DNA from: Gammaproteobacteria bacterium
Lineage (GTDB): Bacteria; Pseudomonadota; Gammaproteobacteria; UBA1113
NCBI GenBank assembly: GCA_019752835.1
Contig: JAIELR010000223.1
Location: forward strand, 1-9,139
Length of the DNA: 9,139 nucleotides
Reading direction: 5' to 3'
The notes beneath the pieces are model-generated. The model did not search any database, was not told the origin of the DNA, and saw only the letters and a list, made by a program, of their open reading frames with translations. Both the position numbers and the translations under genes were made by a program. This document shows positions 1-9,093 of the stretch, piece by piece (within the stretch, counting starts at the first letter, position 1; every line of letters begins with the position of its first letter).

Positions 1-700
1 TAGCGTAGCAGGCAGAGCTACGAATCTTCCCGTTATTATCCTGGAGCAATCCGCTTAAGGTTGCTAAAAAATCCGGAGTAGCGGCAGCCGCACCAAGCTT
101 GCCTACAGCATCACCAGCAGAGCTACGAATCCTCCCGCTATTATCCTGGAGCAATTCGCTTAAGGTTGCTAAAAAATCCGGGGTAGCTGCAGCCGCGCCG
201 AGCTTGCCTACAACATCACAGACAGATTGTCGAACATTCGCCCTATTATTTCGGAGCAATCCGCTTAAGGTTGCTAAAAAATCCGGGGTAGCGGTAGTCT
301 CACCAAGCCTACCTATGGCATCACAGGCAGATTGGCGAACGCGTGCCTCCTTATCCTGGAGCAGTTCGCTTAAGGCCGCTAAAAAATCCGGGGTAGCTGT
401 CGTACCCAGTCTGCTTATGGCATCACAGGCAGATTGACGAACGCGTGCCTCCTTATCCTGGAGCAATCCGCTTAAGGTTGCTAAAAAATCCGGGGTAGCT
501 GCAGTCGCACCAAGCCTACCTATGGCATTACAGGCAGACTGACGAACGTCCGCCTCCTTATCCTGGAGCAGTTCGCTTAAGGCCGCTAAAAAATCCGGGG
601 TAGCTGCCGTACCCAGTCTGCTTATGGCATCACAGGCAGATTGACGAACGTATGCCTCTTTATCCTTGAGCAATCCGCTTAAGGCTGTTAAAATATCAAG
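1..700 (-). repeat. Tandem 102/105-bp repeats coding for HEAT-like units
   Basis: The motif cttaagg recurs at 54, 159, 264, 369, 471, 576 and 678, giving periods of 105, 105, 105, 102, 105 and 102 bp. All are multiples of three, so the frame is kept. Each unit encodes 34-35 residues of the form TPDFLATLSGLLQD followed by a variable acidic or basic turn, then VRQSACDAI, then G/S-R-LG. This is a two-helix HEAT-like repeat. Units alternate strictly between LSGLL and LSELL, which points to a two-unit (about 207 bp) ancestral duplication. The array continues beyond the left edge, so copy number is unknown. The oldest-looking unit is the first (residues about 1820-1850), which is the most divergent. 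Confidence 0.93.
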
Positions 701-3700
701 TGTGGCGGCAGATGGGCCGAGCCTTGCTACTGCACGACAAACAGAGCCGCAAGCAAGAGGAGAAGACAATAATAAATACTTGGCGCATCGATGCAGGAGC
801 GGCTCCGTGACAATGACCTCACCCAGCACATCGATGTAACGGAGCGCCTTTTGGGGATTGCTCACGGCCTCGACATCTAAAGATTGAACCAACAAAGGCG
901 CTAGGTGTTTTCCCCAGGCAGAACTTTGTCGTAATTCTGAGGTAATCGGATGGGAATAGTGATAAACATTTGATTTATTGATAACGTCCTGTGATAATTG
1001 ACTCACAAAACCGCACCAAGCTGACGGCACTCTATCAATCAACAACTCTTCGATACAGCGGACACGCAAGACGTTATGGAAAGTTCCGTTTAACGGTAAG
1101 GGCGGGGAATCCATCAATGCGACTAGATTATCCAGGTGTGGATGGACTTTATCTTGCACCAATAACCCCATCACAAACGGCCAAAAACGGGCAAAATGAA
1201 CATCATACTTATAGCGCTGAACGAAAAGCCTATTATTGTCTGCCTGAGTAGAATTTTTCCATTGTTCGACAAACACCCAGGCAGCCAAGTATTCCTGTAA
1301 GGTTAAATGCAGAAATTCGCCCTGTCCTCCGAAATCCTTGTGATGGGAAGACCAGACCAATCCCCTGACCAACCCACTGTAAAACACATCATAAAAACAC
1401 GCTTGCTCGTTTTGCCCATAGGCGTCGCGCATGACATGTCGTAAAGCCGCTTTCAACTCACCCGCCTCAAACTGCGCTTGACTATTTTTCAAGCCCTTTA
1501 AGGCTAGCTGACCCAAGCCCATCAGAAGGCACTGTACTTTCGGAGACGTCAAAAAAGTATTGTCATCCGTTAAAGCGCCTACTGAGATAAAATCCACTGA
1601 TAAGGTGTTGGCGTCATAGGCCCGTTTCATCAAATAAACGAAAAGTTGGGTGTAAAGCTGGGTGGTGTTTAAACCACTGAAATCAGGCAGCGCCCCACCT
1701 GACATCACCGCACATAAAATCTCCAGATTCACTGGTATGTGGGCTAATCCCCGTATTTTAAGATGCTCGGTCAATAAAGTCTTTAAGCGAGAGTAACCGG
1801 GGTGGTTTTGTTTTTTTTCAAAATGCTTATCGACATAAGCCATAACATTTGCTTGTGAAAACCCTAATAATTCAACCTGCCGAAAGGGCTGTTCGGCATG
1901 TTCGACAGGGCAACGATAATACGGCCGAGACGTCACCACCACCCAGGGTTGCTTTAAGAAAAAATCATGAAACATCTGCTGAACAGGGTCCACTCGGGGC
2001 AAACTTGCTATTTCATCATATCCATCGACTAAATAAAGTATGTCATTTTTATCGGTTTGTAACAGGGTTTTGATATCTTGTACGGAGCTTGCTATGGCAT
2101 AGCTCTCTTTTAGAGGGTCCCAGGATTGTTCCTTTAAGTAAGTCGCCATACTGCTGAGTGGTAAAAAACGGGCATGGGCGCCTTCCTCCTGATAACGCCA
2201 CCAGGCAGCAGAGTCAGGAGACGCAGGCAACATATTGCGTAGTTTGACCCATATGACGCACTTTATTCTCTCTGGCAGCCAAGGCGCCGCCTCTTTCTCA
2301 CCCATACTCCATTCGTAGGCCAGCCGCTGCATCAGTGTGCTTTTGCCGCTGCCGGCAGCACCTGCTATCCACACTTTTTGTACAGGGTTGCTCGCCTTAG
2401 GCAACGCCCGAAAAAGCTGAGTATAGGCAATGTTTTTTTTCTCTTGGGTGATTTTCTCCGCCGGATTCACATACAGCTCATGCCAGTCCTGTGGTGTTTT
2501 TTTCTCATCACGTTGCGCAGGGTTACCTTGTTGAGCAGATAACAACAAAGCCAATTGAATGAACGAATCCGTAATCGGCCAAGATTTCTCCGCTATCGGG
2601 CGTACGAGCCAGCGTGCCTGATTTTGATAAATTTCTCTCAGAGTAAAGTTTAGCGATACCCGAGGTACTGCTGCTTTGGTAAGAACAGTTATTATGTCAT
2701 TATGCTGATTTTCTCGGGCTAATTCTAAAGGGGTTTTATTTTCAGTATTCCTATAATAAGCTTTAGCTCCACATTTTAACAATAATTCAACCGATTGTAT
2801 CCAGCCACGCTTAGCAGCGGTATGTAGATAGTCATCATCGTTAACATGTTCTCTATAAAACTTATCAATAAGATAATAAGCAATATTATCTCGATTATAA
2901 TTTTGCTTAAGGTTAACAGTAAGCGCCGCCATAAGGGGGTTCCTTCCCTCTTGATTCCGCTGGGTATTTATAGGGTATTGATTAGTTTTCTCAAGTAAAA
3001 ATTTAACCATCTCAAAGTAACCATGATAGATAGCGATAAACAATGCATTAGCACGGTTACCGCTGAAAATTATTGAAGTATCAATACCTAGATTTTCATA
3101 TCTATTTTGCAATAATTCTAAAATTGCTAACTGATTACGGGATGCTGCCTCTATAAATACGGCACGGCGATTAGTAGACTCCTCTAAGTCTTTAGTTTTA
3201 ATAAGCACTTCATCCGTCATTGCCTTTATTATTGCTAAACCTATTTCTAAATAACCACCTTGGAGCGCATGATGTAAGGCCGTATTACTTTTTATATCTT
3301 GAGCCTCCAAAGATATTCGCTCTTCAGACAAAAAATATTTGACAATATTTTTACGATTCTTTATTGTAGCAATCATAAGTAAAGTTTGCGATTCGCTGTT
3401 CTTTGTGTTCCATAAAGGGCTTTTATCTTTATCGACTCCAATCAACATCTTAACTTGCTCTAAATTACCTGCCTCCACACTTGCAATCAACTTGTGTTCT
3501 TGTTCGATTAAAAAATTATCAAATTTCGCCACTAATTCTTTTTTATCAACTTGCTCATTTTTTTGTTTATTGGAACGTTGGCTCACTACTTTTAAAGATA
3601 AACCATCTTCGATAATAAGAGAGGGCCTTGGCTGGGGAAGTGAAGCTGGTTTAAACGGATGTCCCCACGCTTGTGCCATAGAAGACCCATATTGAGGTCG

Positions 3701-6157
3701 AATCAATAGTTCATCTCTACTTTTTGCTGTTATTTTTGATTGGAACGTCACTTTAAAGAGCGTTATGGCCGCATTGAGAAGATGCTCTTTATCACTCATC
3801 AGCCATTTCTCAAACGGCTGATATCTTTTTATATTTTTAGGTAATAACCACCCTTCGAATTTATCTCTTAAGTCACCGGCGGAGGATTGAAAGTCTTGTG
3901 TATAGTATCTAAAACAAACCAATAAGGCATCATAAGGTTTTTGATAAATGGGAATTTTTGCATTCTTTTTGACTTCGTTAATTAACGCAATACTGCGATT
4001 TAACAGCGCAAAAAGTGCCACATGGAAAACCTGGATATCAATAGGTTCTAATGCTTTTAATCGCGCGAGCAAGCTATCCCCTTTCTGATAAGGGCGGTCA
4101 TTAAACCACTGGGCGAGCGGCCCCCAGAGCATATCAGCGACCCGTTCATCATACTTGGCCGTACGATATAAAATCTCCCCTAAACTTACGCCTTGTGATT
4201 GATATTGCTGGGTATGCAATAGCCGAAAACCGACTTGTTGCAGTACCGAGCACAACACCACATGCCGGCGGTCAATGCGTAAACTGTCATCCTGGCTTTG
4301 TTGCCACGCCACCGTATGATAAATCGCACTGTCATTGACATACCCCTCGTGTGCAAACAAATTCGCTAAAATCAACGCTTCTAGCTGCTTTTGATGGGCT
4401 TTCAGGAAGGTGGCGACTCCCTTACGGTAGGCTTTTTTTTGCGTTTGTACCTCTTGATAGAGGGAAACTCTTTCTGTTTTGGCTCGCTCTATTCCTAATA
4501 TGATGACCTCTTTCAGGTCATCGTCGTCCAATTGCTTCAATGAAGCTTTTAATTTTTCGATTTTTTTATCTGATGCATCTAATTTTACCTGGCACTCCTG
4601 TAATTGTTTGTTCGATTGAACGGTTTCCTTTGCCGTCTGTTTTAACGTGAAGCGCATCGAAGAAACGTTAAAAATATGTTTGGCGTACAACAATTGCAGC
4701 GCGTAAATCTCATTATCTTGCTTTACAAGAGAGGCTTTCAGATTTAACTTTAATCCTTCGGGCCCTCGTATGTTTTTTAGGCTTTCTACAAAAGCAGCGT
4801 CGTTCAGTTGCTGGGCCAAGGCATCTTTTTTAAAGGTATAAAAGTCTTCAACTTGTTGGGCCACTTTCTCCATTAAGCTGGCTATTTCGATAGCATTGGG
4901 AGTCCCATGCCAATCCACCGTGATTTTCTCAATCACCTCACTTTGCCACTTTTTTTTATTTTTGCCATAATATTCTCGCAAGGAAAAAAGACTGGCGGCT
5001 AACTCCAACACCTGCTTCTCTTGCTTATACGTCGTATAAAAATCTTCTTTTTCAAACGACCTCAGCACATCTTTATTAATCAAAGGTTTCTTATTGAACT
5101 TCAAGGCTACATCGGGATGTAAAAACCCCTTTGAATACACATTAGAGTCCCGGCTGGTAGCGCTGGTTAAACCCAGCTCTTCAAAACTGATTTTATTAAA
5201 ATACGCCATAAGAGCCGCTTCTGTTACGACTTCAATATCGGTGCTTGCTGTGGGTGCTGAAAATAAATTCGGCCAAAATTCATGCGGCCATATCGCCTTC
5301 TTGACCCAGTCTGTTCGGTGGCATTCCACTTGGATACTCGTATCAATATCGGAGGTTACATCCCGGCTACCCGGTGCTTGAATACTGACGGTGAATAACG
5401 GGCTATTGTCATTCCCGACTGATTCAAATACTTGCCAAACGTAATACTGTAACTTATACTCCGTCGCGTCTTTATTAACGCCCGTGTTTCGACGTAAGCG
5501 GTTATACTGGTATTGATTTCCCCCTGCTCTGTCATTCAAGAGTAGTTTAATCGCCTCTTTATAAATCACGGTATCGAGCTCATCTCTTTTGTTAATCAGG
5601 GCTTTCACGACCTCTTCACATTCTTTTTGTTCTGCTTCCGATAAATGCGGGTTAAAAAGATGCCAGTCCAAAAGCGTGCGCCAATCATATCCTTTTTTAA
5701 CTAGAGATAAAAAGAGTCCATACGGATTCCCTTTGGGCTCCTCAATAAAAGACGTTGTTAACAGTGGCTTCCTTTCTTTTTCTATAAAGTGTATAAGGTC
5801 TTTCGTTTTTTCATGGTATTTGGTTCCCTCGACACGCTGATTTGACGGGACACTTAAATTTAAGATATTAACGTTATCCAGATTCACACAGGGGATTGGT
5901 ACAGTTGGGACAATGCTTTGTGATATATCAATATTCGTAGCCTCCCCAAGAGGAGGGACTTTCGGTAAAGAATATGTTGGCAAGGACGAGTTGTTAAGAG
6001 CTGTAGGTAAACAATCAGAATAAACTTTGTCAGAATTTAAAAAATTCTCAAGATCCTTCATTGAAGACTCACCTAACCAATGAAGTATTTTTTGACGCTC
6101 TTCTTCAATGAGCGCTATTTCAATGGGTGAAAGCTGACTAGGGTTGCTTTTTTTCAT
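1..6157 (-). CDS. Giant STAND/NLR-like protein: nucleotidyltransferase-like block, coiled coil, ankyrin repeats, NACHT NTPase, HEAT repeats (3' end beyond window)
   Basis: Reading the minus strand from ATG 6155-6157 gives 2052 sense codons without a stop up to the window edge, so the C-terminus is missing. Residues about 1-225 are unassigned. Residues 262-274 read PGSRDVTSDIDTS, the GS...DxD signature of Pol-beta-type nucleotidyltransferases, followed by a possible third acidic residue in RDSNVY (D337). Residues about 503-580 are charged and heptad-like, a probable coiled coil. Residues about 886-1165 hold degenerate ankyrin repeats (TALHHALQGGYLEI; LHTAAKRGWIQSVELLLKCGA). Residues 1258-1440 are a NACHT domain: Walker A GAAGSGKST (1266-1274, K1272), Walker B ILYLVDGYDE (1373-1382) and sensor VVVTSRP (1406-1412). 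The FLHLTLQEYLAA motif (1615-1626) is typical of the helical region after NACHT. From about residue 1820 on there are HEAT-like repeats. The start follows directly on the stop of the upstream gene with no good ribosome binding site, so translation is probably coupled. Family knowledge: NACHT proteins are ligand-triggered oligomerising switches, used in bacteria in antiphage defence and in eukaryotes in immunity. Effector role and target are inferred. Very sure of NACHT, ankyrin and HEAT; moderately sure of the nucleotidyltransferase block. Confidence 0.93.
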   Translation of the reverse strand, partial: MKKSNPSQLSPIEIALIEEERQKILHWLGESSMKDLENFLNSDKVYSDCLPTALNNSSLPTYSLPKVPPLGEATNIDISQSIVPTVPIPCVNLDNVNILNLSVPSNQRVEGTKYHEKTKDLIHFIEKERKPLLTTSFIEEPKGNPYGLFLSLVKKGYDWRTLLDWHLFNPHLSEAEQKECEEVVKALINKRDELDTVIYKEAIKLLLNDRAGGNQYQYNRLRRNTGVNKDATEYKLQYYVWQVFESVGNDNSPLFTVSIQAPGSRDVTSDIDTSIQVECHRTDWVKKAIWPHEFWPNLFSAPTASTDIEVVTEAALMAYFNKISFEELGLTSATSRDSNVYSKGFLHPDVALKFNKKPLINKDVLRSFEKEDFYTTYKQEKQVLELAASLFSLREYYGKNKKKWQSEVIEKITVDWHGTPNAIEIASLMEKVAQQVEDFYTFKKDALAQQLNDAAFVESLKNIRGPEGLKLNLKASLVKQDNEIYALQLLYAKHIFNVSSMRFTLKQTAKETVQSNKQLQECQVKLDASDKKIEKLKASLKQLDDDDLKEVIILGIERAKTERVSLYQEVQTQKKAYRKGVATFLKAHQKQLEALILANLFAHEGYVNDSAIYHTVAWQQSQDDSLRIDRRHVVLCSVLQQVGFRLLHTQQYQSQGVSLGEILYRTAKYDERVADMLWGPLAQWFNDRPYQKGDSLLARLKALEPIDIQVFHVALFALLNRSIALINEVKKNAKIPIYQKPYDALLVCFRYYTQDFQSSAGDLRDKFEGWLLPKNIKRYQPFEKWLMSDKEHLLNAAITLFKVTFQSKITAKSRDELLIRPQYGSSMAQAWGHPFKPASLPQPRPSLIIEDGLSLKVVSQRSNKQKNEQVDKKELVAKFDNFLIEQEHKLIASVEAGNLEQVKMLIGVDKDKSPLWNTKNSESQTLLMIATIKNRKNIVKYFLSEERISLEAQDIKSNTALHHALQGGYLEIGLAIIKAMTDEVLIKTKDLEESTNRRAVFIEAASRNQLAILELLQNRYENLGIDTSIIFSGNRANALFIAIYHGYFEMVKFLLEKTNQYPINTQRNQEGRNPLMAALTVNLKQNYNRDNIAYYLIDKFYREHVNDDDYLHTAAKRGWIQSVELLLKCGAKAYYRNTENKTPLELARENQHNDIITVLTKAAVPRVSLNFTLREIYQNQARWLVRPIAEKSWPITDSFIQLALLLSAQQGNPAQRDEKKTPQDWHELYVNPAEKITQEKKNIAYTQLFRALPKASNPVQKVWIAGAAGSGKSTLMQRLAYEWSMGEKEAAPWLPERIKCVIWVKLRNMLPASPDSAAWWRYQEEGAHARFLPLSSMATYLKEQSWDPLKESYAIASSVQDIKTLLQTDKNDILYLVDGYDEIASLPRVDPVQQMFHDFFLKQPWVVVTSRPYYRCPVEHAEQPFRQVELLGFSQANVMAYVDKHFEKKQNHPGYSRLKTLLTEHLKIRGLAHIPVNLEILCAVMSGGALPDFSGLNTTQLYTQLFVYLMKRAYDANTLSVDFISVGALTDDNTFLTSPKVQCLLMGLGQLALKGLKNSQAQFEAGELKAALRHVMRDAYGQNEQACFYDVFYSGLVRGLVWSSHHKDFGGQGEFLHLTLQEYLAAWVFVEQWKNSTQADNNRLFVQRYKYDVHFARFWPFVMGLLVQDKVHPHLDNLVALMDSPPLPLNGTFHNVLRVRCIEELLIDRVPSAWCGFVSQLSQDVINKSNVYHYSHPITSELRQSSAWGKHLAPLLVQSLDVEAVSNPQKALRYIDVLGEVIVTEPLLHRCAKYLLLSSPLACGSVCRAVARLGPSAATLDILTALSGLLKDKEAYVRQSACDAISRLGTAATPDFLAALSELLQDKEADVRQSACNAIGRLGATAATPDFLATLSGLLQDKEARVRQSACDAISRLGTTATPDFLAALSELLQDKEARVRQSACDAIGRLGETTATPDFLATLSGLLRNNRANVRQSVCDVVGKLGAAAATPDFLATLSELLQDNSGRIRSSAGDAVGKLGAAAATPDFLATLSGLLQDNNGKIRSSACYA

Positions 6158-7648
6158 TTAAGTATTCTTAAATAGAGGTTGAACCATATCATTTTTTTTT
6201 AAGGATTGTAACTCTTTCCAATGTTTTTCAGTTATTTTTGGTTCCAAATCTTGAAGATTATTGTATTTCATTAAAATACGTGAAAAATTGAAAAGTGGTT
6301 TCCACTCCATAGCCGTTCTTATCACCTTTTTAGTTTCACTGTCCGTCGCGTTAAGTGAAGAAAATTTTGATTTTGCTAATTCTTTTGGGGAAAGGCCGGT
6401 TGCTTTACTTATATCTGCACAATCTAGTAAGGTTAAGTGCAGTTTTGTATTGGTGAAAGTACACGAAGAAAGAATAGCATTTGAAAACTTAGCTCGTGAA
6501 AAATCCGCTTCGGAAAGGTCCTCACCTTCTAATGTAAGCGTTTCACAATTAGCTTTATCGTTGTTTTTTCCAAACACATGATGAGAAGAAGAAACGCATT
6601 TTGTAAAAAACTCATTAAAACTTCCCTTCGGCTCACAAGCTAAATAGCGCTTTACAATATTCACTCGCTCATCTGAATTGCCACTGTTGTGGCTAAGATT
6701 CTCCTCTTTTTTATCAAAATTTTTATTTTCAGTGGAAAACCCTGTTAAGGCTGATTGCAGCTTATCTTCCTCATCTTGAGTAGAGAGTGAGTAGTAATGA
6801 AATGAGCAATTATTATACGCTTCCCGTGTTGCGGAGAATTTTTCAGCATACACATTACCATTTATTTTCGCAAGATTCGTCTGAGTTGGTGTATCATCAG
6901 AGCTGCCACTTAGTTTTTTTCTCTCTCCACCACCCGTGTGGCCGACGTTTAGTGGTGGAGAGGTGCCTGGGAAAGCCGCGAATTTAAGGCTCTCGTGTAA
7001 ACGAAGTACTTCTTGCTCAATGAGTTTCTGGCATTTTTTAGCAGCGCGCTCAGATTTAAAGCTTAGCTGAATAATACAATCCTCTTCCACCACCGCCGAA
7101 TCTGGAATATAACCAAATATTTTTTTCCCTTCGTTTTGTATCACGATTTGTAACGCTAATCGCTCATTCTCATTTAAGGGCAAATCAACATAATCTACGT
7201 CAATCACGTGAATCTTTTCCTCTTCTTTTGAATAAATAATTCCCTTGACCTCGACTGCATGCAATGACGTTAAAACAGGTTGAGATGCAAAATGTCCGCC
7301 CCCTTGGCCCGGGTTTATATTTGACGCAAACGAAGACACCGGCCCATCAGACATTACTTTTTCTTCCTCATCTATCGCTTCAATGTCGACGTCAATGTTA
7401 TGCATGTCTTTTGCTGTTATCTTTCTTGCTAATATATAAGATTGGTGAGGAATACTTAAATCCTGCTTTTCTTTTTCAACCGCCAATCGGTACATTAAGG
7501 GGTCACGATACAGACCGGTGACTTCTTTCCCCCTGTCTTTGGAAAATTTGATTTTATTGGACGTATTGGTCATGGTCCCCGTAACTTTAATTTCGTCTGC
7601 GGTAATAAAAGCGCCTTGCACTGTGGGTTGTTTGTCTTGTTTTTTCAT
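6158..7648 (-). CDS. Pentapeptide-repeat protein, partner of the NACHT protein
   Basis: A 496-residue protein, first gene of the operon. Most of it is unrecognised. Residues 1-100 are hydrophilic. Residues about 130-225 look like a small alpha/beta domain ending in a basic helix. Residues about 226-260 are a Gly/Pro/Ser-rich linker. Residues 371-415 form nine consecutive pentapeptide repeats, with the central hydrophobic residue exactly every five positions: L373, L378, F383, F388, L393, F398, L403, L408, I413. Such repeats build a right-handed quadrilateral beta-helix, here only about two coils, so much shorter than the DNA-mimicking Qnr/MfpA proteins. No signal peptide or membrane segment is visible, suggesting a cytoplasmic protein. 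The ATG at 7646-7648 is preceded by AGGA at 7659-7662 (10 nt away) and by purine-rich GGAAAGAG. Its TAA (6158-6160) touches the ATG of the giant gene, so the two are almost certainly co-transcribed and coupled. Function unknown; regulator, adaptor or co-sensor of the NACHT protein is only a guess from position. Confidence 0.9.
   Translation of the reverse strand: MKKQDKQPTVQGAFITADEIKVTGTMTNTSNKIKFSKDRGKEVTGLYRDPLMYRLAVEKEKQDLSIPHQSYILARKITAKDMHNIDVDIEAIDEEEKVMSDGPVSSFASNINPGQGGGHFASQPVLTSLHAVEVKGIIYSKEEEKIHVIDVDYVDLPLNENERLALQIVIQNEGKKIFGYIPDSAVVEEDCIIQLSFKSERAAKKCQKLIEQEVLRLHESLKFAAFPGTSPPLNVGHTGGGERKKLSGSSDDTPTQTNLAKINGNVYAEKFSATREAYNNCSFHYYSLSTQDEEDKLQSALTGFSTENKNFDKKEENLSHNSGNSDERVNIVKRYLACEPKGSFNEFFTKCVSSSHHVFGKNNDKANCETLTLEGEDLSEADFSRAKFSNAILSSCTFTNTKLHLTLLDCADISKATGLSPKELAKSKFSSLNATDSETKKVIRTAMEWKPLFNFSRILMKYNNLQDLEPKITEKHWKELQSLKKNDMVQPLFKNT
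6923..6962. repeat. Perfect 11-bp inverted repeat inside the pentapeptide gene
   Basis: Left arm CTCTCCACCAC (6923-6933) and right arm GTGGTGGAGAG (6952-6962) are perfectly complementary, separated by 18 nt. The element lies within codons about 229-242 of the pentapeptide-repeat protein, in the Gly/Pro/Ser-rich linker. It could fold as a strong mRNA hairpin. No T-run follows on either strand, so it is not an intrinsic terminator. It may be a small palindromic element tolerated in a flexible linker. Confidence 0.7.
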
Positions 7649-7858: not shown

Positions 7859-8746
7859 TTAATCCGTTTTTTGAGCGCTCAATGCTTCCAGAATACTCCT
7901 GTCAAGCCCGGTCATAGCATGGACCTCTTCTACCGTTTTGCCCTGGGCAAATAATTCGATAGCGTGAAGGGTTTGTTGTATCGTTTCCGCTTTACCCTCG
8001 GCTTTACCCTCAACTTTGCCTTTCGCTAAGCCTTCTTCAAACTTATCATGCAACATCGCCTTTTCTGTGCTCACGTAATGCCAATATTGATCATAGGCAG
8101 CCAATTCATCGGCATTGTAAGCCGACATTTCACTTAACTCCACGGCTTGCTTAATCTCAGGGACCTCGAGCCACTCTAGCGGAACTTCTTTCGTCTTCTT
8201 ATCCAGCTCGGACATGAACCGTAACCACAACACTTGCAATTTGCGATGACTCACTGAAGTGGCTTTAAATTTGGGCAACTCGATAAACACTAACTGTAAA
8301 TCTTTGATATCGCGCTGGGTATTTTGAACATTGACCAGTTTGTAATGGTGATACCAAGCATCCGAGGTGGGGTCAAACGTACTGCCCAACAAGCCTAACC
8401 CATACACCGGTTTCAAGAGGTCATAGGCTTCCCCTTGTTCGAGCTGACGCACATACGCCGTACTGGCCCCAAACAATAAACGTTGCATGAAGCTTTTCGT
8501 CCACTGAATCTGCATCTCCACGATGAAAATCCGCCCTCGACTATCGGTGCATTTCACATCCACCAAGGTGGATTTAAAACCGGGGATGTGGGGCACTTGC
8601 TCGCCGGGCAGATAGGTCAAGGATTCAATCAAGCCATCCTCAGGCAGCGGCAGTACGGCGTTTAAAAAACTTTTTAAGAGTTTGGGGTGTTGACCAAAGA
8701 TTTTTTTGAACACCACATCGGATTTTGGGTCAAGATAACGTGACAT
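7859..8746 (-). CDS. Rpn family recombination-promoting nuclease / putative transposase (PDDEXK_2)
   Basis: A complete protein of 295 residues, within the usual length for the family. It begins MSRYLDPKSDVVFKKIFG, the characteristic Rpn N-terminus. The PD-(D/E)XK nuclease core is intact: VDVKC (D63) followed by IFIVEMQ (E77, Q79), the D...ExQ arrangement of this family. A hydrophobic mid-region follows, then a charged helical tail with GKVEGKAEGKAE (residues 243-254) and a C-terminal helical stretch ending in TGLDRSILEALS, both usual in this family. Family knowledge: these are DNA endonucleases related to E. coli RpnA, promoting RecA-independent recombination; they are abundant and often multicopy in host-associated bacteria. 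The start at 8744-8746 is chosen because AGGAG lies 7 nt upstream and because homology begins exactly here; the frame stays open for 42 more codons upstream, but those look non-coding. A terminator separates it from the downstream operon, so shared function is not required. Confidence 0.9.
   Translation of the reverse strand: MSRYLDPKSDVVFKKIFGQHPKLLKSFLNAVLPLPEDGLIESLTYLPGEQVPHIPGFKSTLVDVKCTDSRGRIFIVEMQIQWTKSFMQRLLFGASTAYVRQLEQGEAYDLLKPVYGLGLLGSTFDPTSDAWYHHYKLVNVQNTQRDIKDLQLVFIELPKFKATSVSHRKLQVLWLRFMSELDKKTKEVPLEWLEVPEIKQAVELSEMSAYNADELAAYDQYWHYVSTEKAMLHDKFEEGLAKGKVEGKAEGKAETIQQTLHAIELFAQGKTVEEVHAMTGLDRSILEALSAQKTD
7989..8024 (-). repeat. 12-bp tandem repeat coding for GKxEG units in the nuclease
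   Basis: Two almost identical 12-bp units (gctttaccctcg / gctttaccctca, 7989-8012) and a third diverged one (8013-8024) encode GKVEGKAEGKAE in the Rpn tail. Whole-codon units allow copy-number change without loss of frame. Confidence 0.7.
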
Positions 8747-8753
8747 GAAGCGG

Positions 8754-8758
8754 CTCCT
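8754..8758 (-). promoter_or_regulatory. Ribosome binding site of the Rpn gene
   Basis: AGGAG on the minus strand, 7 nt before the ATG at 8744-8746. It decides the start of the 295-residue form over the longer open frame that reaches 8872. Confidence 0.8.
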
Positions 8759-8782
8759 AAGGAGGGTGGACGAGATAGCGAC

Positions 8783-8788
8783 AGTATA
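8783..8788 (-). promoter_or_regulatory. Candidate -10 box for the Rpn gene
   Basis: TATACT on the minus strand matches the sigma-70 -10 consensus at five of six positions and would give a leader of about 30 nt ending in the AGGAG site. No good -35 is seen at the right distance. Instead the GC-rich inverted repeat GGCCT/AGGCC (8800-8804, 8811-8815) lies there and could be an operator. Confidence 0.4.
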
Positions 8789-8799
8789 CCCGAAAGGAA

Positions 8800-8815
8800 G
8801 GCCTAAGGCGAGGCC
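8800..8815. repeat. GC-rich inverted repeat upstream of the Rpn -10 box
   Basis: GGCCT (8800-8804) and AGGCC (8811-8815) pair across 6 nt, next to an alternating GCGCGCGC tract (8815-8822). This is a sharp GC peak in otherwise AT-rich intergenic DNA, placed where a -35 region or an operator would be. Confidence 0.4.
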
Positions 8816-8865
8816 GCGCGCGCTCTTGACCAGGGCAATCGCATCTAAATTTTGAATAAAATGAC

Positions 8866-8894
8866 TTGACAAACTGTTACGGAGATGATCTATT
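8866..8894 (+). promoter_or_regulatory. Candidate sigma-70 promoter, plus strand
   Basis: TTGACA (8866-8871, perfect -35 consensus), a 17-nt spacer and TCTATT (8889-8894, four of six matches to TATAAT). Transcription would start near 8901 and give a very short leader before the ribosome binding site at 8904-8908. Pointing away from the Rpn gene, it would make the locus divergent. Confidence 0.35.
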
Positions 8895-8916: not shown

Positions 8917-9093
8917 ATGGAAAAGACGGCTCTTTTACAAAGCTGTAGAAATCAGTTAAGCAAAGATTTCAGCTCCTTGAAAATCGAGGAAGAGTCGCTG
9001 AAAAATAGTTTTGACTTGACTAAAGCCATAACATCGTCGTTTAGCGACTTTAATTTTATTAGTCATACCGCACCAGCGAAGCGGGTGGCTTGA
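8917..9093 (+). CDS. Possible small protein of 58 residues (doubtful)
   Basis: The ORF starts at ATG 8917-8919 and ends with TGA 9091-9093. GGAGG (8904-8908) lies 8 nt upstream, a promoter-like pair lies upstream of that, and a hairpin terminator follows 9 nt after the stop. The peptide is hydrophilic (starts MEKTALLQSC), with no recognised family and no membrane segment. Against it: the whole ORF is antisense to a recognisable transposase fragment, so the frame may be accidental. If transcribed, the product could equally be a non-coding or antisense RNA, since the 3' half contains two further hairpins (9036-9048 and 9071-9087). Confidence 0.25.
   Translation: MEKTALLQSCRNQLSKDFSSLKIEEESLKNSFDLTKAITSSFSDFNFISHTAPAKRVA
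9036..9048. repeat. Short stem-loop GTCG/CGAC
   Basis: GTCG (9036-9039) and CGAC (9045-9048) flank 5 nt. It is the first of three successive stem-loops up to 9119, within the transposase remnant. Confidence 0.35.
9071..9087. repeat. Stem-loop CACCAGC/GCGGGTG
   Basis: CACCAGC (9071-9077) and GCGGGTG (9081-9087) pair with one mismatch around a 3-nt GAA loop. This is the second of three consecutive hairpins. Confidence 0.4.

What the first reader, a model, noticed from the sequence alone, without database searches (positions are those of the whole stretch)
1..6157. Giant fusion: nucleotidyltransferase-like block + coiled coil + ankyrin + NACHT + HEAT in one reading frame
Seen: 2052 codons without interruption and all NACHT motifs intact (Walker A with K1272, Walker B DGYDE, sensor TSRP, FLHLTLQEYLAA). 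Two repeat-type recognition regions flank the NTPase: ankyrins before it and HEAT units after it. Known: bacterial NACHT/STAND proteins usually carry one N-terminal effector and one C-terminal sensor in 600-1500 residues. Inference: a sensor-switch-effector machine of unusual size, with two separate recognition arrays, that could serve phage sensing or manipulation of a eukaryotic host. I am not aware of this exact domain order as a described system.
Basis: partly seen in the sequence, partly recalled or inferred. Interest (0 to 1): 0.85.

Follow-up and report, generated by a model that had tools for sequence, protein, structure and literature searches.

The report
Giant NACHT switch with unknown module
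A very large bacterial protein joins an immune-receptor-like molecular switch to a previously unnamed 700-residue module that related microbes, several of them symbionts of amoebae, seem to have wired to such switches more than once, so it may be a new kind of output for bacterial immune-like receptors.

Summary
The frame is real: 2052 codons on the minus strand (window 6157 to 2). It runs off the window inside a tandem HEAT array, so the C-terminus is missing. Ankyrin, NACHT and HEAT are confirmed by Pfam. Residues 137-845 match no Pfam or NCBIfam family but form one conserved module, M, found in 19 of 35 proteins scanned. M also stands alone in Parachlamydia and kin and occurs with histidine-kinase/PAS domains, an OTU and another unnamed domain, U. 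Four M proteins carry a NACHT-type NTPase, with M on either side; the M tree needs four label changes. U is the start of the gene directly upstream, in the same frame, separated by one TAA; it is fused to M in one relative and to NACHT-HEAT in another. The 15 NACHT relatives found carry no M. Best reading: a STAND switch with M as output module. 'Nucleotidyltransferase' is not established: M has a conserved GS-x5-DxD motif and third aspartate, but the spacing is non-canonical and fold and profile matches are weak. Target (phage or eukaryotic host) is open. New variant of a known kind.

The parts
2..6157 (-). Giant ORF, 2052 codons, ATG start, open at the window edge (C-terminus missing)
5750..6157 (-). 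N-terminal linker, residues 1-136, no family match
   Evidence: boundary
3623..5749 (-). Module M, residues 137-845: conserved family without a Pfam or NCBIfam match in these scans
   Evidence: HMM match 740 bits (its own row is in the seed); AF2 pLDDT 80, pTM 0.83 for residues 130-850
5336..5377 (-). Motif APGSRDVTSDIDTS, residues 261-274; P262, G263, S269, D270, D272, T273 invariant in 15 of 15 rows
   Evidence: pattern PG[ST][RK]xxxSD[IV]D in 19 of 19 M proteins
5135..5155 (-). Motif SRDSNVY, residues 335-341; D337 is a candidate third acidic residue
4361..4735 (-). Predicted long helices (coiled-coil hairpin) inside M, residues 475-599
   Evidence: model residues 346-470
4139..4366 (-). 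C-terminal conserved patches of M: ANLFAHEGYVNDSAIYH 598-614, VLQQVGFRLLH 638-648, AKYDERV 667-673
2663..3505 (-). Ankyrin repeats, residues about 885-1165
   Evidence: Pfam Ank_2 99.3 bits; extent from PDB matches 890-1164
2378..2656 (-). Pre-NACHT segment, residues about 1168-1260; a similar segment stands at the N-terminus of several relatives
   Evidence: sequences (P0020, P0022, P0023, P0025, P0026), by eye; motif W.ITDSFIQLALLL at 1193-1206
1814..2374 (-). NACHT NTPase, residues 1262-1448
   Evidence: PF05729 51.0 bits (cut-off 26.7); motifs
698..1813 (-). NACHT-associated helical region, residues 1449-1820, including FLHLTLQEYLAA
   Evidence: weak NLRC4_HD2 match 18.2 bits (below its cut-off 33.1); otherwise inferred
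2..697 (-). HEAT array, residues about 1821-2052; seven units of 34-35 aa, the last cut by the window edge
6158..7648 (-). Upstream gene, 496 aa; same frame as the giant, its TAA directly precedes the giant's ATG
6959..7648 (-). Domain U, residues 1-230 of the upstream protein; fused to M in P0005 and to NACHT-HEAT in P0019
6389..6559 (-). Pentapeptide-repeat-like stretch of the upstream protein, residues 364-420
   Evidence: Pfam Pentapeptide 26.1 bits (cut-off 20.2), best stretch 377-403; wider range from a sub-threshold NCBIfam match

Best explanation
A STAND/NLR-like signalling ATPase in which the ankyrin array (before the NACHT) and/or the HEAT array (after it) recognise a ligand; the NACHT then exchanges nucleotide and oligomerises, which clusters and switches on the N-terminal module M. 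M is the output (effector) module, probably an enzyme with an acidic active centre (D270, D272, D337 and invariant basic and polar residues). The upstream U-pentapeptide protein, made from the same frame, is a working partner. Shown: the architecture, intact NACHT motifs, M and U as separate conserved domains, and their fusions in relatives. Inferred: ligand recognition, oligomerisation, M's activity and its dependence on the switch, U as partner. On the target I lean slightly to functions that face a eukaryotic host rather than phage.
For: Ank, NACHT and HEAT in one frame with all four NACHT motifs looked for. M in 19 of the 35 proteins scanned, 15 of the 19 being rows of the seed alignment; joined to a NACHT-type NTPase in 4 (this one, P0002, P0003, L001), to HATPase-response regulator-PAS in P0004, to a Polyketide_cyc2 domain in P0014, and alone or with other N-termini elsewhere. 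The M tree needs 4 changes (gains or losses) of the label NACHT-fused, all 4 forced by strongly supported branches. The 15 other proteins returned for the NACHT core lack M, the nearest being P0019 62%, P0020 51%, P0021 46%, so M was probably added to a NACHT-HEAT core. Members of that group carry patatin (P0026) or TIR (P0025); P0026's patatin also matches PADLOC effector models. Characterised bacterial NACHTs are described as N-terminal effector, central NACHT, C-terminal sensor (PMC12169576, passages). U links to both other parts: U-M in P0005, NACHT-HEAT-U in P0019.
Against: No activity of M is known and no Foldseek match reached E 0.001. In 3 of the 4 NACHT-M proteins M lies C-terminal to the NTPase, unlike the usual effector place, as do patatin and TIR in P0026 and P0025. 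P0002's NTPase scores below Pfam's NACHT cut-off (21.5 against 26.7). In 15 of the 19 M proteins no NACHT was seen, so M can exist without the switch. The four label changes are no fewer than shuffled labels need (500 of 500 shuffles as low): they show scatter, and may include losses. The C-terminus of this protein is unseen.
Confidence: 0.55

Rival explanations
1. Host-directed protein: an amoeba-associated bacterium delivers this protein, or M relatives, into a eukaryotic cell, where Ank/HEAT bind host proteins and M modifies a host target.
For: The named carriers of stand-alone M are Parachlamydia, Protochlamydia and Neochlamydia, with four M proteins in Parachlamydia sp. AcF125. The genome holding L001 has a DotI/IcmL gene, E 1.5e-64, with 0 of 14 control genomes matching. 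Company of Ank, OTU, patatin, LRR in M proteins, NACHT relatives or that genome. Parachlamydiaceae have expanded F-box/(OTU)/DUF294/TPR families thought to act in the host (PMC4209131, one section read). Wolbachia phage WO has a NACHT-ankyrin-latrotoxin protein (PMC5062602, passages).
Against: No secretion signal was tested for this protein; its C-terminus is missing. For 17 other proteins only glutamates in the last 30 residues were counted (0-5), which decides nothing. The source organism of the window is unknown.
Confidence: 0.4
2. Intrabacterial antiphage receptor: HEAT/Ank sense a phage product and M stops growth or kills the infected cell, as bacterial NACHT proteins do.
For: Same tripartite plan as characterised bacterial NACHT proteins (PMC12169576, passages); similar repeat units recall fast-evolving NLR sensor arrays described in fungi (PMC4986451, passages); a NACHT relative carries TIR and another a patatin that matches PADLOC phospholipase effectors; an Rpn-family nuclease gene lies in the window.
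Against: In the giant PADLOC models hit only HEAT, Ank and, weakly, the P-loop; none hit the upstream gene or P0003, P0005, P0008. P0002 and the Rpn gene were not scanned with PADLOC.
Confidence: 0.35
3. M is not an effector but a scaffold, ligand-binding or oligomerisation module.
For: Large helical content with a long coiled-coil hairpin; M lies after the NTPase in 3 of 4 NACHT fusions.
Against: Invariant acidic, basic and polar residues of a kind often seen in catalytic sites, 15 of 15 rows; stand-alone forms exist.
Confidence: 0.25
4. Degenerate or misassembled gene: an originally longer U-M-Ank-NACHT-HEAT protein broken by a nonsense codon, with the array collapsed in assembly.
For: U gene and giant share one frame with a single TAA at codon 497; P0005 has U and M in one protein; no Shine-Dalgarno-like sequence found before the giant's ATG; the contig ends in tandem repeats.
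Against: 2052 codons with no further stop, motifs intact; module and NACHT at 60 and 62% identity to their nearest relatives; abutting stop and start also fit translational coupling.
Confidence: 0.12

Closest known systems
Bacterial NACHT (bNACHT) antiphage proteins, e.g. bNACHT25 (PMC12169576, passages read)
   Same: Central NACHT with domains on both sides; effector-switch-sensor plan
   Different: bNACHT25 has an N-terminal PD-(D/E)XK DNase; here an unnamed ~700-aa module plus ankyrins precede NACHT, and HEAT follows; more than 2050 aa; no antiphage test
Gammaproteobacterial MAG NACHT-HEAT proteins P0019, P0020, P0021
   Same: 62, 51 and 46% identity over the NACHT core; HEAT after it
   Different: No M; P0019 ends in U, P0021 begins with an AAA-ATPase_like domain
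Stand-alone M proteins of Parachlamydia, Protochlamydia, Neochlamydia (7 hypothetical proteins of 750-782 aa)
   Same: Full-length M, same motifs, 25-27% identity to the window's M
   Different: No precomputed Pfam domain; none found in P0008 by a scan
Fungal NLRs with internally conserved repeats (PMC4986451, passages read)
   Same: NACHT plus superstructure-forming repeats with highly similar units
   Different: Eukaryotic; other effector domains; diversification there was shown with isolates, not here
Wolbachia phage WO NACHT-ankyrin-latrotoxin protein (PMC5062602, passages read)
   Same: NACHT and ankyrins in one protein of a eukaryote-associated bacterium
   Different: Ankyrins and a latrotoxin C-terminal domain lie after NACHT; no M described in the passages seen
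Neochlamydia NEX2 family: F-box/(OTU)/DUF294/TPR (PMC4209131, section read)
   Same: Amoeba-symbiont family with a putative nucleotidyltransferase, sometimes beside OTU
   Different: DUF294 is not among the 25 of 40 Pfam families shown for the M alignment; M's head matches a DUF294 profile from 16 unnamed-genome loci no better than shuffles; NEX2 proteins themselves were not compared

Membership tests
NACHT / STAND NTPases | Pfam NACHT above gathering score | tested here: met
   51.0 bits against 26.7
NACHT / STAND NTPases | Walker A, Walker B, sensor and C-terminal helical motifs intact | tested here: met
   GAAGSGKS, DGYDE, TSRP, FLHLTLQEYLAA located; motif roles are recalled
Bacterial NACHT antiphage proteins | N-terminal effector, central NACHT, C-terminal sensor | tested here: inconclusive
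   Order M-Ank-NACHT-HEAT fits, but M's effector role is inferred and the C-terminus is missing
Bacterial NACHT antiphage proteins | Protection against phage | not testable with these tools
   needs phage challenge
Bacterial NACHT antiphage proteins | Match to a PADLOC defence model over the NACHT or effector | tested here: not met
   only HEAT and Ank matches and a 12.4-bit, E 0.02 match of 24 residues at the P-loop
Polymerase-beta-like nucleotidyltransferases | G[GS] followed by about 7-13 residues and Dx[DE] (pattern recalled) | tested here: not met
   M has 5 residues between GS (GT in one) and DxD in 19 of 19; 10-14 in the 20 of 25 SMODS/NTP_transf_2 loci with a legible motif, longest reading (L026 was not given), and 10 in 16 of 16 DUF294 loci, where the script looked for 8-12; linkers read by eye
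Polymerase-beta-like nucleotidyltransferases | Third acidic residue on a later strand | tested here: inconclusive
   D337 invariant 15 of 15, just before predicted strand 338-342; geometry not measured
Polymerase-beta-like nucleotidyltransferases | Nucleotidyltransferase fold | tested here: inconclusive
Polymerase-beta-like nucleotidyltransferases | Profile similarity | tested here: inconclusive
   head vs NTP_transf_2: aligned on the GS/DxD motif, P 0.035, probability 1.5%, 0 of 60 column shuffles as high; vs SMODS 8 of 60 and DUF294 6 of 60 as high, DUF294 with longer flanks 9 of 100. Controls: NTP_transf_2 vs SMODS 77%, DUF294 vs NTP_transf_2 15.9%, DUF294 vs SMODS 0.3%: the method misses true relatives too
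Dot/Icm or type III translocated effectors | Translocation into a host cell | not testable with these tools
   no C-terminus in the window
Module M family (defined here) | Full-length match to the M profile and its motifs | tested here: met
   residues 137-845, 740 bits; the sequence is itself in the seed alignment

The most novel reading that the evidence does not exclude
M is a previously undescribed enzyme family, distantly nucleotidyltransferase-like, that amoeba-associated bacteria have repeatedly wired to NLR-like NACHT switches and other sensors; together with U and giant Ank/HEAT/LRR arrays it forms a bacterial NLR repertoire aimed at eukaryotic hosts or their parasites, not only at phage.
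Probability: 0.3. Interest if true: 0.82.

Novelty: new variant of a known kind. Interest (0 to 1): 0.6.

Why it matters
If M is the output of these switches, it adds an unnamed effector family, without a match in the Pfam and NCBIfam scans made here, to bacterial NLR-like receptors. Because M also exists as a stand-alone protein in named Chlamydiae, its activity can be tested on its own. The M/U/NACHT-HEAT fusions give directly testable predictions about which proteins work together.

Tried and rejected
Assembly artefact as the main explanation: rejected because M keeps 60% identity over the whole query to P0005 and the NACHT region 62% over 96% to P0019; an array collapse at the contig end cannot be excluded.

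Nucleotidyltransferase as a settled identity: rejected after profile comparisons with SMODS, NTP_transf_2 and DUF294 loci, Pfam on 15 members, a PDB profile search whose 9 matches all lay at profile positions 277-468, away from the GS/DxD motif, and Foldseek/VIA. A fold missing from those VIA lists is not excluded, and the profile controls show low sensitivity.

M in viruses, phages or plasmids: two viral-contig scans gave no relative; the best places in 3 phage records were the ankyrins; the best places in 6 plasmid records were NACHT or the region from 1749 on, mostly HEAT; U gave no plasmid match. M in further genomes: 1 of 185 relatives and 1 of 369 class-mates of G001, both being G001 itself; the two sets overlap. 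One genome-contig scan found nothing, the second one locus; Chlamydiae were not returned although protein records exist, which I cannot explain.

NACHT tree: my motif filter kept 14 sequences and dropped P0002, P0003, P0028, P0030 and P0031; L001 and others sit on long branches, so only the P0001-P0019 pairing (94/97) and the distance of L001 are used. Short two-copy repeats and inverted repeats were not pursued. The 134 non-synonymous and 77 synonymous codon differences among HEAT units were not tested against a model and carry no weight.

Literature: ten searches listed no paper that I recognised as describing M or this domain order. Seen beyond listings: passages of PMC12169576, PMC5062602, PMC10907252, PMC4986451 and PMC4209131 and one section of PMC4209131. 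The library lacks many subscription papers.


Full report
What is there. The minus-strand frame from window 6157 to 2 holds 2052 codons without a stop and runs off the window. Pfam gives ankyrins (residues about 885-1165), NACHT (1262-1448) and HEAT (about 1821-2052), above the curated cut-offs; the NACHT motifs are present. The window ends inside a tandem array of 102-105-nt units; the second copy is 90% identical to the first, the other five 60-79%. So both the number of HEAT units and the C-terminus are unknown. Seven units of 34-35 residues are visible, the last cut.

The N-terminal block is a family. Residues 1-880 have no Pfam match above cut-off among the 25 of 36 families shown. A search with this region returned three other proteins, and a four-sequence profile returned 14 more; in both, only the candidates sharing most words were scored. 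A genome scan added one locus, L001. An HMM of the module, M, built from 15 rows that include the window, hits 19 of the 35 proteins scanned, best domains 325-985 bits, P0014 in two pieces. All 19 have PG[ST][RK]xxxSD[IV]D. In the 15-row alignment G263, D270, D272, R336, D337, S338, N339, Y341, K353, K378, E385, H614, Q641, K668, Y669 and R672 are invariant. The best relative is P0005, 60% identical, from a Gammaproteobacteria MAG; seven stand-alone forms come from Protochlamydia, Neochlamydia and Parachlamydia, four of them from Parachlamydia sp. AcF125. AlphaFold2 gives mean pLDDT 80 and pTM 0.83 for residues 130-850; the head alone (145-470) is poorer, pLDDT 72 and pTM 0.57.

M is joined to switches in several proteins. 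NACHT-type NTPases accompany M here (M first), in P0002 (a STAND-like domain below the NACHT cut-off, then WD40, then M; a pentapeptide domain is in its precomputed list), in P0003 (NACHT, HEAT, M, OTU) and in L001 (NACHT, a long region, M). P0004 carries HATPase, response regulator and PAS before M. On the M tree the label 'NACHT-fused' needs four changes, all forced by well supported branches, and 0% of 200 bootstrap trees show a single change. These are gains or losses, and shuffled labels need no more (500 of 500 as low), so this shows scatter, not clustering. With M on different sides of the NTPase, and L001's NTPase far from the window's, I read it as repeated joining; that is an inference.

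The NACHT core has its own history. Its nearest relatives are P0019 (62%), P0020 (51%), P0021 (46%) and P0022 (45%); none of the 15 other proteins returned has M. In the NACHT tree P0001 pairs with P0019 (94/97) and L001 lies outside a 100/98 branch that holds the window's group (14 sequences, long branches). Several relatives start at the pre-NACHT segment (by eye). So M and the ankyrins were probably added in front of a NACHT-HEAT core. Group members end in ankyrin-patatin (P0026) or TIR (P0025), or start with an AAA-ATPase_like domain (P0021).

A third part. The upstream gene encodes 496 aa. Its first about 230 residues, U, match the start of P0005 (46% over 279 columns), where U and M share one protein, and the end of P0019 (52% over 219 columns), where U follows NACHT-HEAT. 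The U profile, built from these three, hits only these three of 35. Thus U, M and NACHT-HEAT are linked pairwise. In the window, U and the giant are in one frame of 2549 codons with one TAA at codon 497, followed at once by the giant's ATG, before which no Shine-Dalgarno-like sequence was found. This may be a coupled pair or a split gene; I describe it and leave it.

Host side or phage side? Carriers with names are Chlamydiae, which infect amoebae according to abstracts seen in a listing, and uncultured Gammaproteobacteria or Proteobacteria. The genome with L001 has DotI/IcmL and further large NACHT proteins, one of 2987 aa with LRR, ankyrin and thioesterase domains. That leans towards eukaryote-facing biology. 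The architecture itself is that of bacterial NACHT antiphage proteins (PMC12169576, passages), and a NACHT relative's patatin matches PADLOC effector models. No test here decides.

Verdict. A real, large STAND protein of known kind, with an unnamed module as probable output and a domain order not met elsewhere in the searches made here.

Noticed in passing
window 6158-6160 and 6157: The 496-aa upstream gene and the giant share one reading frame, separated by a single TAA directly followed by ATG, with no Shine-Dalgarno-like sequence found.
   Followed up: partly
window 7862-8872 (-): Rpn-family recombination-promoting nuclease/putative transposase (PDDEXK_2 147.4 bits; TIGR01784 114.5 bits); an ATG at about 8746 (by eye) may be the true start.
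   Followed up: partly
window 8957-9060 (-), approximate: Short open stretch ending in a stop that looks by eye like the tail of a transposase; no family search was made.
   Followed up: no
L053:333-9296: 2987-aa LRR-ankyrin-thioesterase-NACHT protein in the genome that holds L001: the giant NACHT size class is not unique to the window.
   Followed up: partly
P0003 and P0029 (proteins): NACHT-HEAT proteins that also carry an OTU-like domain (P0003; P0029 from the precomputed Pfam list).
   Followed up: no
P0007 and P0016 (same longest-contig length 12,586): Two M proteins apparently on one contig, paired in the M tree (100/100), suggesting a local duplication.
   Followed up: no
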